Translations under genes and position numbers: made by a program
NCBI GenBank assembly: GCA_002049495.1
Contig: LLYS01000006.1
Span: forward strand, 1-64,000
Reading direction: 5' to 3'
Length of the DNA stretch: 64,000 nucleotides
DNA from: Epsilonproteobacteria bacterium tcs-49
GTDB lineage: Bacteria > Campylobacterota > Campylobacteria > Campylobacterales > Sulfurovaceae
In this document: positions 27,670 to 31,858 of the stretch, piece after piece
Layout of the letters: every line of letters begins with the position of its first letter
How positions within the stretch are numbered: position 1 is the first letter of the stretch
The notes under the pieces: generated by a model
What the model was told of the DNA's origin: nothing
Database searches by the model: none
What the model saw: the letters and a program-made list of their open reading frames with translations, nothing else

Positions 27670-28211
27670 CCGCCATCCCTACACAGCAAGGGATAGGCAT
27701 ATTAAACACGGAGCTTAGAAACAGTGTTACTAAGTTTGTGCTTATAGGTGCGACAAACTATACAGATGCAAACCTTGACACTCTTCTTGGCGATACAGAG
27801 GTGATAACATACGCTGATATTCAAGGGTATGTCTTTTATCACGGCACGGTTGAGAGTGCATATTTTGATGATGATGGAGTACTTACTTTTGAGCTGCTTC
27901 TACCTCTTGAAGATGATCTTCAAAAATACACTTATGCAGTCGGGCTTGTGAGTGAAAGCAATGAGCTTGTGAGTATCACTCCAACTCCAAAGATCGTTTT
28001 GATCTCTGGCGTGGGTGGTACCTTTGTTGTGAAAGTATCTGTCAAGGGTAGTCCTGGAGAGATAGTTTTCAAAAATAGTGAGTATGTGACTCCAGCTGAG
28101 CTACAGAACCACAAAGAGAATGTTTTAAGACCGGTCGTTGCAAATGCAACTAATTATTTTGATCTAACAGACAAACTTATAGAAAAAGGAGTAATTGATG
28201 TTAACAACTGA
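27657..28211 (+). CDS. tail fibre N-terminal/tail-collar protein
   Basis: Position and start MANLTAIPTQQGIGILNTELRN. Confidence 0.65.
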   Translation: MANLTAIPTQQGIGILNTELRNSVTKFVLIGATNYTDANLDTLLGDTEVITYADIQGYVFYHGTVESAYFDDDGVLTFELLLPLEDDLQKYTYAVGLVSESNELVSITPTPKIVLISGVGGTFVVKVSVKGSPGEIVFKNSEYVTPAELQNHKENVLRPVVANATNYFDLTDKLIEKGVIDVNN

Positions 28212-30159
28212 AGAGCTTAATATAGCTATAGAGGAGCTTCTCGTTAAAGCAAGAAGTGTTTTTGACAAGTACGATGGAGCTTTCGCTGCTATTGGTACTC
28301 AAAAAGATGGTGCGGTGAGTGAGCTAAACACTCTTCATACTCAGCTTATGAGCGACTTGCAGGATTTAGCAAACGGCGTGGGGCTTGAGCACGAGTGGGA
28401 CGGTACATCTGTAAGATTTAAACAAAATGATGGAACTTGGGGAAGCTGGGTAAATCTTCAAGCACCCTCAAGCTTTGATTATGAGCAAGCAGGTAACCCT
28501 GGCGTAAATACAAATCCTACCACTGCAAATGCTAAGTGGCTAAACATAAGCACCGCAGAGCTTTTTGTATGTACGGATAATACCACTGATGCAAATATAT
28601 GGATAGGTAGTGCCGGCACTACGGTTCAACCAAATGCGTTGCCTACAAATCCTACAAATAGCTTTCCGGCTAACTTGTACAACAACCAAACATATAGTCA
28701 TACTTTTGGCGGTGCTACCGATAGTGACGGAACCATCACTCACTATGTGGTTGATCAGATAAGCTCTGCAAACCTTACGGTTGCAACTGCTGAAGTTGCT
28801 GCAGGAAGTGCTCACGAGTTCAATATAGCAGATATCGCAAGTGATGAGACTGTTACTTTTAGAGTAAGATCAAAAGATGATTACGGATCATATAGTACCG
28901 GGATTACTGTAACTGTTCAGTTAAAGCTCTCAAGCATTGGTGTTCCTGGAACTGCTGGCTTTGGTGTTGGTGTTGCACCTGATAGTTTGGTAACTGCTTT
29001 TAACTTAACACCCATGACCGGTTACAGCGACCCAACGCATGATAACTACGGAAACTATGCAGATGCTTCAGGCTCTGTTTTATGTTATATCCCTAAGCAC
29101 TATGTAAAAAAGACTCATGATACTGCCGCACCATATAACGGTCTTAGAATAGATATAAGCGGTGGAGCGGATGTTGGCTATGCTCTTCCTAGATGTTTTG
29201 TAAATAACGGGGTAGAAGTAGCCGGTATTTTCGTTGATAAGTTCCAACTTGGAAAAGAGGGAACAGTTGGAGTTTCAAAAAGAAACCTTGATCCGGTAAG
29301 TACAGACAGTGCTCACAACCCTATCAGTGCCTTAACTGCAAATGGACAATCACCAGCACAACGATATGACGGGATGTATGCAGCTGTTAAAAGCAGAGGG
29401 GACAACTACTCTCTTGAGTCAATATTTGTCTTTACTATGCTTGCAGACCTTGCTGATGCACACTATCAAGCGTGCTTTAGGGCTGGAGATTTTTCAAGTT
29501 GTGCTTGGGCTGATGTTGCACCGTATCAACCAAAAGGTTGTAATAATAACGCTCTTGCAGATAATAATGATGCATCTGTTACATACACTGGCTCTGGATA
29601 CAGCAACTGCGGATTGACCGGTGGAGTACCTGATGCTGTGTTTGCAAAAATCACTCATAACGGTCAAAAGTGTGGTGTGGCTGACCTTAACGGTAACATG
29701 TGGGAGGTTGTGGCTGGATATATCACTGATGCTTCAGGAAACCACTTTGTGCTTAAAGAGAGCGTGGATATCAAAAGCTTAATCGCAAGTGCTGCTTATG
29801 ATACTGCGAACTATGATGCGATCACTATTCCGCTTACACTTGATAGCACTCAAGTTGCCTTTGGAAATGGTACCAATCAGTTCTTTAGCGGTAGCACAGA
29901 TAGAAACTCTGATGCGTACAAGCTTGATAATATCGGTCTGCCTATGGCTGATACAGCAGTGAGCTCAGGTGGTACTGCTAGATATGGTCAAGATGGTTTT
30001 TGGAGATATCAGACTAACTCAATGTGTCCGATTGCCGGCGGTAATTGGAACAACGCTGCTCTTTCCGGTGTTCGCACTCGGTATTTGTACGACGCTCGCG
30101 CGCATTCGGGCCGCGGTGTGGGTGGGCGTGCCTGCTTGATTCCTTCGGTAGCAGGGTGA
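28195..30159 (+). CDS. DGR target: tail fibre with C-type-lectin-like (Mtd/FGE-type) variable C-terminus
   Basis: GQKCGVADLNGNMWEVVAGY...NSMCPIAGGNWNNAALSGVRTRYLYDARAHSGRGVGGRACLIPSVAG; VR homologous to TR. Confidence 0.9.
   Translation: MMLTTEELNIAIEELLVKARSVFDKYDGAFAAIGTQKDGAVSELNTLHTQLMSDLQDLANGVGLEHEWDGTSVRFKQNDGTWGSWVNLQAPSSFDYEQAGNPGVNTNPTTANAKWLNISTAELFVCTDNTTDANIWIGSAGTTVQPNALPTNPTNSFPANLYNNQTYSHTFGGATDSDGTITHYVVDQISSANLTVATAEVAAGSAHEFNIADIASDETVTFRVRSKDDYGSYSTGITVTVQLKLSSIGVPGTAGFGVGVAPDSLVTAFNLTPMTGYSDPTHDNYGNYADASGSVLCYIPKHYVKKTHDTAAPYNGLRIDISGGADVGYALPRCFVNNGVEVAGIFVDKFQLGKEGTVGVSKRNLDPVSTDSAHNPISALTANGQSPAQRYDGMYAAVKSRGDNYSLESIFVFTMLADLADAHYQACFRAGDFSSCAWADVAPYQPKGCNNNALADNNDASVTYTGSGYSNCGLTGGVPDAVFAKITHNGQKCGVADLNGNMWEVVAGYITDASGNHFVLKESVDIKSLIASAAYDTANYDAITIPLTLDSTQVAFGNGTNQFFSGSTDRNSDAYKLDNIGLPMADTAVSSGGTARYGQDGFWRYQTNSMCPIAGGNWNNAALSGVRTRYLYDARAHSGRGVGGRACLIPSVAG
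30023..30134 (+). repeat. DGR variable repeat (VR)
   Basis: 112 bp aligned to TR 30624-30735; 12 differences, all at TR adenines. Confidence 0.95.
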
Positions 30160-30168
30160 CAACCCTGC
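30151..30168 (+). promoter_or_regulatory. DGR target hairpin after VR
   Basis: GCAGGG-TGACAA-CCCTGC; stop codon TGA lies in the loop. Confidence 0.7.
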
Positions 30169-30194
30169 GATAATTAAGGTCTAAAAGGGAGAGT

Positions 30195-30596
30195 ATGACA
30201 ATTAGTGCTGAAACAACTTTCGTAAGAAAGTATATAGACTTTTTGAAGCAGCTTAATATGTACCTCAATCACTTTCCGAGGCACGAAAAATATGCACTTG
30301 CTCAAGCAATTAGACAAGATGCATATCGTGTTTTTGACTTGATGGTTGAGGGACAAAAGAAGTACTACAAAAAGACAAGCTTGACTGAGCTGGATATCAC
30401 TTTTGAACAGCTCAAGTCTAAGTTTTTGTTGGCGTACCGCCTTGGATATTTTCAGTTCAAGGATGGGAAAACAGATAGCAAAAACCCTACCACAATGAGT
30501 GAGAAAAGGTTTGCCGTTCTCTCAAGAATGGCTGATGAGCTGGGTCGCATGATTGGCGGCTGGATAAAGAAAGTTAAAGAAGATAAGAAATGGTAG
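30195..30596 (+). CDS. avd: Avd-like DGR accessory protein (four-helix bundle)
   Basis: 133 aa helical basic protein between target gene and TR; LNHFPRHEKYALAQAIRQDAYRVFDLMVEGQKKYYKK. Confidence 0.9.
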   Translation: MTISAETTFVRKYIDFLKQLNMYLNHFPRHEKYALAQAIRQDAYRVFDLMVEGQKKYYKKTSLTELDITFEQLKSKFLLAYRLGYFQFKDGKTDSKNPTTMSEKRFAVLSRMADELGRMIGGWIKKVKEDKKW

Positions 30597-30623
30597 TACC
30601 ATCAGGCATCATACGATCATGTC

Positions 30624-30735
30624 TGTGTCCGATTGCCGGCGGTAATTGGAACAACGCTGCTCTTTCCGGTGTTCGCACTCGGAATTTGAACAACACTCGC
30701 ACGAATTCGAGCAACAATGTGGGTGGGCGTGACTG
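30624..30735 (+). repeat. DGR template repeat (TR)
   Basis: Adenine-rich template matching VR; encodes N/T/S codons at variable positions. Confidence 0.95.
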
Positions 30736-30781
30736 TGACTTTACTTCCTCGCAGCTTAACAGCTTGTGGAGTGACAGGGAT

Positions 30782-31858
30782 ATGATGTCTGGCTTTTTAG
30801 CGAAATATTTTAAAACCTCGATTGTGGTAGGCGATAAAGCCGAAGCTCTAAAGGAAATATGTTTGAAGCGGCGTGGGAATTTGTATGAAGAGATCATAAG
30901 TAGTGAAAATATGTTTCAAGCTTTTAAAGACGCAAAAAGCAGCAAAAGAAACAACAAAACTGTTTATGAGTTTGAGTTGAATTTTGGCAGAGAGATGGGT
31001 GACTTGCTCCTGGAGCTACAAAAAGGAACCTATAAGCCAAAGCCGTACAATAAGTTTTATGTGTATGAGCCAAAAAAGCGTGTTATATACGCTCCAGCTT
31101 TTAGAGATACAGTTGTACAGCATGCTCTTTATAGGGTTGTATATCCTATATTTGAAAGGACATTTATAACTCAATCTCATGGTTGCAGAAGAGATCATGG
31201 TTGTCATAGCGCAAGCGATTATCTTTTAAAAAGGATGAGAGCTTGTGACGGTGAGGAGTATTTCCTCCAGCTAGACATAAAGAAGTATTTTTACTCTTTT
31301 GATAGATCAGTCTTGAGAAAGCTTCTTGAGAGAAAGATAAAAGACAAAAGAGTAGTTGATCTTCTTATGATGTTTGCAGATTTTGAGGGGGACAGAGGTG
31401 TTCCTATAGGGAATCTTTTGTCTCAGCTGTACGGTCTTATATATCTTAATCCGCTTGACCACTTTGTGAAGCGAACCCTCAAGGTTAAGAACTATGTGAG
31501 ATATGTTGATGATTTTGTGCTGATTGGTCTGAGCAAGAGCCAAGCAAATTTGTATCTTGAGCAGATTAAACTCTTTTTGAAAAATGAGCTTGGGCTTGAA
31601 CTTTCAAAAGCGACCAGGGCAAAGATCAAAAAGGGAATAAACTTTGTCGGGTATCGAACCTGGCAGAGTCATCGGCTCGTTAGAAAGTATGCGGTTCATA
31701 AGTTTAGAAGAGCTTGTGTGAGAGGAAAGGTTGAGTCTGTGATCAGCATGATAGGTCATGCAAAAGATACGCAGACCATACCTCACTACAAAGAGATTTT
31801 AAAGGAGTTTGGTATGACTGAAAAACTACCTAAAAAACTACAAAGGAGTATGGCGTGA
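30782..31858 (+). CDS. DGR reverse transcriptase (ORF is open from 30590, through the TR)
   Basis: IGNLLSQ (DGR variant of QGxxxSP) and YVRYVDDFVL; ATGATG at 30782 preceded by AGGGA. Confidence 0.92.
   Translation: MMSGFLAKYFKTSIVVGDKAEALKEICLKRRGNLYEEIISSENMFQAFKDAKSSKRNNKTVYEFELNFGREMGDLLLELQKGTYKPKPYNKFYVYEPKKRVIYAPAFRDTVVQHALYRVVYPIFERTFITQSHGCRRDHGCHSASDYLLKRMRACDGEEYFLQLDIKKYFYSFDRSVLRKLLERKIKDKRVVDLLMMFADFEGDRGVPIGNLLSQLYGLIYLNPLDHFVKRTLKVKNYVRYVDDFVLIGLSKSQANLYLEQIKLFLKNELGLELSKATRAKIKKGINFVGYRTWQSHRLVRKYAVHKFRRACVRGKVESVISMIGHAKDTQTIPHYKEILKEFGMTEKLPKKLQRSMA

What the first reader, a model, noticed from the sequence alone, without database searches (positions are those of the whole stretch)
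28195..31858. Complete diversity-generating retroelement in the prophage tail module
Order is target fibre, VR, hairpin, avd, TR, RT. VR (30023-30134) and TR (30624-30735) align without gaps over 112 bp with 12 differences. Every difference is at a TR adenine (A to T, G or C). TR protein is NLNNTRTNSSNNVGGRD; VR protein is YLYDARAHSGRGVGGRA. This is the hallmark of adenine-specific mutagenic homing and implies host-range diversification of a Mu-like phage.
Basis: partly seen in the sequence, partly recalled or inferred. Interest (0 to 1): 0.85.

Follow-up and report, generated by a model that had tools for sequence, protein, structure and literature searches.

The report
Complete phage gene-diversifying retroelement
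A virus dormant in a marine-type sulfur bacterium carries a complete, recently active copy of a known device that rewrites chosen letters at the end of its own tail-protein gene; the device is ordinary for its kind, but its template is joined to a conserved folded RNA that overlaps the ribosome-binding site of its own enzyme.

Summary
VR 30023-30134 and TR 30624-30735 align gaplessly over 112 bp with 12 differences, all at TR adenines (24 of 112 sites; chance 6e-10). Order: target, VR, GRNA-loop hairpin, avd, TR, RT. The RT matches the BPP-1-type solved enzyme best; the target folds like DGR variable proteins TaqVP and Mtd. Two sister phages give a natural experiment: one has an identical TR but a VR differing at 8 sites, all TR adenines, 0 of 88 elsewhere. 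So this is a complete, recently active DGR in an intact Mu-like prophage (7604-39724). One of the 12 differences (position 109) is shared by all three phages and is probably a fixed boundary mark, not mutagenesis.

A model built without the window finds it at 30728-30861. The RT's ribosome-binding site overlaps its last helix. TR is in frame with RT; in the neighbouring clade 17 lineages lack the RT's own start, so TR and spacer are probably translated with RT, which has one published precedent. New member of a known kind; moderate interest.

The parts
28198..30159 (+). Target gene: tail protein of 653 aa ending in a C-type-lectin-fold variable domain
   Evidence: Model mean pLDDT 84; best solved fold matches TaqVP E 1.5e-14 and BPP-1 Mtd variants; PHROG tail matches
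30023..30134 (+). Variable repeat (VR)
   Evidence: 112-nt gapless repeat of TR, 12 differences all at TR A
30117..30131 (+). G-rich, invariant 3' end of VR followed by the fixed C at 30131 (TR has A at 30732); candidate IMH
   Evidence: Same C in the VRs of L003 and L004; role inferred from BPP-1
30151..30168 (+). Hairpin GCAGGGT-GACA-ACCCTGC, 16 bp after VR, holding the target stop codon
   Evidence: Sequence; script; fits the published 7-10 bp stem, GRNA loop and 4-34 bp distance (PMC3240598)
30195..30596 (+). avd, accessory variability determinant, 133 aa
   Evidence: Pfam bAvd 57.9 bits, PHROG Avd of DGR
30624..30735 (+). Template repeat (TR), in frame with RT
   Evidence: identical in L004
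30728..30861 (+). Conserved folded spacer RNA between TR and RT
   Evidence: Held-out covariance model 61.8 bits, E 2e-12; covariation
30850..30855 (+). AAAGGA, likely ribosome-binding site of RT, overlapping the 3' strand of the last helix of the spacer RNA, 7 nt before TTG 30863
   Evidence: Duplex energy -5.6 kcal/mol; alignment
30590..31858 (+). Longest RT reading frame (422 aa) from an ATG overlapping the avd stop, through TR and spacer into RT
   Evidence: residues 1-96 predicted disordered
30863..31858 (+). RT core (331 aa), with IGNLLSQ and YVDD
   Evidence: PHROG Reverse transcriptase 350.8 bits; best solved match 8ub7 from residue 93 on
7604..39724 (.). Mu-like prophage of 32,121 bp carrying the DGR; duplicated target GTATA at 7599-7603 and 39725-39729

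Best explanation
A complete, recently active diversity-generating retroelement of a Mu-like temperate phage. The TR RNA, folded at its 3' side into a conserved spacer structure that should recruit RT and Avd, is reverse transcribed; template adenines are copied at random; the cDNA replaces the VR at the end of the tail-protein gene, guided by the G-rich 3' end of VR and the hairpin behind it, while TR stays unchanged. The result is a variable C-type-lectin-fold domain with up to 14 varying codons, most likely the receptor-binding tip of the tail. Shown here: anatomy, adenine specificity, VR variation over a constant TR in sister phages, target fold, RT type, covarying spacer RNA. Inferred from BPP-1: priming in the spacer, Avd binding, direction of transfer, host-range effect.
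For: 12/12 differences at TR A, P 6e-10. L004: TR identical (0/112) but VR differs at 8/24 A sites and 0/88 others, while avd and RT core differ 5.2 and 4.4%. Avd, DGR-type RT, GRNA hairpin, target fold of DGR variable proteins, spacer RNA. Phage ends and structural genes intact.
Against: Activity in this lysogen now is not shown; the variation seen is between phage lineages. No receptor or host-range data. NCBIfam's Avd model scores below its cut-off (71 of 80 bits), although Pfam and PHROG models agree on Avd.
Confidence: 0.95

Rival explanations
1. A DGR that was active but is now silent in this lysogen: parts intact, no present mutagenesis (for instance not expressed until induction).
For: Only one VR state is known per genome; nothing here measures expression. 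A related genome (G364, L127) holds a decayed DGR with TR, VR, avd and spacer RNA but almost no RT.
Against: All reading frames are open, RT catalytic motifs are intact, avd and RT core differ from the sisters almost only at third codon positions (avd 19 of 21, RT 32 of 44), TR and spacer are unchanged.
Confidence: 0.12
2. RT of this phage is made as a fusion: translation starts at ATG 30590, coupled to avd, and runs through TR and spacer, so the template is also coding sequence of the RT.
For: Frame open with no stop, and the ATG overlaps the avd stop as in L003, L004 and L025. In the neighbouring clade 17 non-redundant RTs have no start codon and no ribosome-binding site at the core, and the spacer has 0 stops in 685 codons in the RT frame against 39/677 and 118/681 in the others. 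Published for the ACA phages (PMC10612066).
Against: The window keeps TTG 30863 with AAAGGA (-5.6 kcal/mol) and internal ATGs at 30779 and 30782; the extension is predicted disordered; 33 of 60 relatives cannot be fused.
Confidence: 0.35
3. The repeat pair is an ordinary gene-conversion or duplication pair with biased ordinary mutation.
For: None beyond the existence of a repeat.
Against: Adenine-only pattern (P 6e-10), same pattern in sisters with other sites fixed and across 60 relatives (966 against 54).
Confidence: 0.005

Closest known systems
Bordetella phage BPP-1 DGR (mtd, avd, TR, brt; AY029185)
   Same: Same order of parts, Avd, RT 33% identical, GRNA-loop hairpin after VR, target of the same fold
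   Different: BPP-1's TR is not in an open frame with RT, its spacer does not match the RNA model, and the phage is not Mu-like
Vibrio phage VP58.5 / VHML-type and Pseudoalteromonas ACA phage DGRs
   Same: Nearly the same gene order: tail protein I, tail fibre, formylglycine-enzyme-like target, Avd, RT with TR in frame, small ORF, sheath; TR stated to be translated with RT (PMC10612066)
   Different: RT only about 33% identical; spacer does not match the RNA model (VP58.5 tested)
Pseudomonas phage Bise DGR (OR683401)
   Same: Closest annotated phage RT, 47% identical; spacer RNA found at 94 bits by the held-out model
   Different: TR reading frame is closed before RT; annotated RT starts at the RT core
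TaqVP, Thermus aquaticus DGR variable protein (5VF4)
   Same: Best solved fold match of the target (E 1.5e-14, TM-score 0.57 by target length)
   Different: 17% identity in the fold alignment; the window's protein has long additional N-terminal parts
Structural group 3 DGRs of Schillinger et al. 2012 (TR overlapping the annotated RT ORF)
   Same: TR lies in the 5' part of the RT ORF
   Different: That group was defined by annotation only; here the frame was tested for stops, starts and ribosome-binding sites across relatives

Membership tests
Diversity-generating retroelement | TR/VR pair differing essentially only at TR adenines | tested here: met
   12/12 at A, P 6e-10; sisters 10/10 and 12/12
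Diversity-generating retroelement | DGR-type reverse transcriptase next to TR | tested here: met
   PHROG RT 350.8 bits; best solved match 178.7 bits against 89.3 for the next; IGNLLSQ and YVDD. A tree with other RT classes was not built
Diversity-generating retroelement | Accessory protein Avd | tested here: met
   Pfam bAvd above cut-off, PHROG Avd
Diversity-generating retroelement | Hairpin or cruciform after VR with GC-rich 7-10 bp stem and GRNA loop | tested here: met
   7-bp stem, GACA loop, 16 bp after VR; random 70-nt windows have such a hairpin in 0.3%; definition from PMC3240598
Diversity-generating retroelement | VR at the 3' end of a target with a C-type lectin fold | tested here: met
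Diversity-generating retroelement | Directional, RT-dependent transfer from TR to VR | not testable with these tools
   Indirect only: TR constant and VR variable in the sister phages
Mu-like transposable phage | Mu-type transposase, portal, head and protease genes | tested here: met
   rve transposase, Portal_Mu, Phage_Mu_F, Mu-like_Pro, DUF3164
Mu-like transposable phage | TG...CA ends and 5-bp target duplication | tested here: met
   TGTAA...TTACA, GTATA on both sides, 32,121 bp
Schillinger group 3 DGR (TR overlaps the annotated RT ORF) | TR inside the RT open reading frame | tested here: met
   ORF 30590-31858 holds TR; group defined in PMC3521204. Whether it is translated in this phage is open

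The most novel reading that the evidence does not exclude
In this DGR clade template and enzyme messenger are one molecule in conflict. The covarying spacer RNA that should recruit RT and Avd overlaps the ribosome-binding site of RT with its last helix, so folding, or RT-Avd binding, would shut RT translation off. In the campylobacterotal branch the RT start and its ribosome-binding site are lost, and RT can only be made by ribosomes running from avd through TR and the folded spacer, so each RNA serves as messenger or as template, not both at once. This would be a built-in feedback on hypermutation.
Probability: 0.35. Interest if true: 0.65.

Novelty: new member of a known kind. Interest (0 to 1): 0.38.

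Why it matters
It adds a well-supported DGR from a Mu-like phage of campylobacterotal bacteria, with sister phages that show its activity in nature. The by-products may matter more: a DGR spacer RNA structure backed by covariation, for which no Rfam family matched in the window, and evidence that in one clade the template is also coding sequence of the RT. Together they make it testable how a DGR balances making RT against using the same RNA as template.

Tried and rejected
A TR-encoded functional RT domain: rejected for the window, because the extension is predicted disordered and 33 of 60 relatives are out of frame or closed. The first impression that the fused frame is general came from searching with the full ORF, which favours fused relatives; sampling by RT core corrected it. 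Spacer RNA model on BPP-1, BalMu-1, VP58.5, ARM81mr, 1F273_PE002, the H. ganmani prophage and cr55_1: no match even with filters off. Rfam at gathering cut-offs: nothing in the window. An ATG at the avd stop as a sign of TR translation in all relatives: suggestive (18 of 31 unfused loci have one in the TR frame) but shared ancestry is not excluded. Perfect 4-nt-loop hairpins after VR are found in only 15 of 60 relatives (14 with GRNA loops), so my strict hairpin pattern is not a family-wide test. Long target homologues (up to 969 aa) as target-RT fusions: they are longer fibres without RT.

Full report
Observation. The repeat search gives one 112-nt gapless pair, 30023-30134 and 30624-30735. 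All 12 differences are at template adenines, of which there are 24 in 112 positions; P = 6e-10. They fall on first and second codon positions only. The peptides are as quoted. avd, RT and hairpin are where stated. The window's genome holds no further TR or VR copy found with the TR as query.

Activity in nature. Two IMG/VR contigs carry sister phages (L003, L004; RT 97 and 96% identical). L004 has exactly the same TR, yet its VR differs from the window's at 8 positions, all opposite TR adenines and none of 88 other positions; avd, RT core and the rest of the target differ by 5.2, 4.4 and 10.4%, mostly at third positions. L003 has a slightly different TR and again 12/12 A-only differences. TR and spacer are the coldest stretch of the cassette (0/112 and 1/127 against L004). 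TR position 109 is A in all three TRs and C in all three VRs; I read it as a fixed mark at the 3' end of transfer, comparable to the IMH/IMH* difference of BPP-1 (inference).

Proteins. The RT's best solved relative is the 328-aa RT of 8ub7 and its series, at 178.7 bits against 89.3 for the next. I take this to be BPP-1 Brt: the annotated brt has the same length; the identity of the PDB series is otherwise my own knowledge. IGNLLSQ and YVDD are conserved in the family. The target was modelled at mean pLDDT 84. Its best solved matches are the DGR variable protein TaqVP (PMC6328139 gives 5VF4 as TaqVP) and the BPP-1 Mtd variants. The phage is Mu-like: transposase, Mu portal, Mu F, Mu I protease, baseplate J, tail protein I, sheath, tape measure. 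Its ends are exact at 7604 and 39724 with duplication GTATA. The host has no name here; related loci of the same family come from records titled Sulfurovaceae and Sulfurovum.

Relatives. An RT-core scan gave 80 viral loci and genome searches gave more. Of these, 89 loci have TR upstream of RT with nearly constant spacing; 60 are non-redundant at 90% RT identity. Over these, VR changes number 966 at TR adenines and 54 elsewhere.

Spacer RNA. An alignment of 48 relatives without the window, L003 or L004 (A2) supports 23 pairs in seven helices: 93.7% of cells paired, 19 pairs with double changes, 251 double-change cells against 74 in shuffles (0/500), and 33-44% paired when slid by 1-3 columns. 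The structure was partly chosen by eye on that alignment, so some excess over the slid versions is expected; the double-change counts are far beyond it. A model from 47 of them, with the window, L003, L004 and L025 held out, finds the window at 30728-30861 with 61.8 bits. In 399 genomes of the class it gives six hits: four at DGRs with RT, one in a decayed DGR that kept TR, VR, avd and the RNA but lost nearly all of RT, and one weak false hit in a repeat array. The same RNA is read in different frames relative to RT in different relatives, so it is conserved as RNA. The BPP-1 spacer is known to fold and recruit bRT-Avd (PMC12875486), but it does not match this model.

Translation. TR is in frame with RT and open in 27 of 60 non-redundant loci, closed or out of frame in 33. 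In 17 of the 27 there is no start codon near the RT core, against 2 of 33 in the rest (Fisher P 3e-6), and no ribosome-binding site there (0/17 at -4.5 kcal/mol or better, against 25/33). In these 17 the spacer has 0 stops in 685 codons in the RT frame, 39/677 and 118/681 in the others, and substitutions rise from codon position 1 to 3 (0.209, 0.287, 0.313), while unfused loci are flat. All 17 lie in one clade of 20 (support 100/99) that also holds two closed loci and one with a weak start; its sister group holds the window and L025 and, less surely, L054. In that clade TR and spacer are very probably translated as the N-terminus of RT; the ACA phage paper states this for its own phages as unusual. 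The counts do not correct for shared ancestry. The window is intermediate: an open frame from ATG 30590, which overlaps the avd stop, but also TTG 30863 with AAAGGA at 30850-30855. I favour 30863 as the main start (about 0.65). That site overlaps the 3' strand of the last RNA helix, hence the feedback idea in the novel case; that idea is inference.

Verdict. DGRs in phage tail modules are well known, including nearly the same gene order in VP58.5, so interest is lower than the first score. The spacer RNA and the template-as-coding-sequence question are the parts a specialist would look at.

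Noticed in passing
window 2835-47436; junctions 7599-7603 and 39725-39729: The Mu-like prophage sits inside a type III CRISPR-Cas locus (Cas1, Cas6-like, Cas10 on the left; RAMP proteins and CARF-type proteins on the right) and splits one roughly 460-aa gene of it into halves (6892-7605 and from about 39726) that meet at the same tyrosine as in intact relatives.
   Followed up: partly
L017 1-2496 (G073:C5) and L018 130-2514 (G073:C1): Two loci of one related genome have the DGR target fused in frame to a single VR/TR hybrid, spacer and RT, with avd missing there and not found elsewhere in that genome. A VR-TR crossover would give this in frame automatically where TR is in frame with RT; an assembly collapse is not excluded.
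   Followed up: partly
L127 (G364:C7): A decayed DGR: TR, VR, avd and spacer RNA present, RT cut to about 25 residues of its core.
   Followed up: partly
window 31855-32412: An ORF of 185 aa without Pfam, NCBIfam or PHROG match starts on the RT stop; a small ORF of unknown function lies in the same place in VP58.5 (gp21) and the ACA phages (gp45).
   Followed up: no
window 15918-17102 (-): The Mu F-like head protein carries a C-terminal PBECR2 domain of the barnase/EndoU/colicin nuclease-like group.
   Followed up: no
L133 7528-7645 and 8025-8142 (G073:C1): A third, more distant RT in genome G073 has one in-frame TAG and lies beside a 118-nt repeat pair that may be another TR/VR.
   Followed up: no
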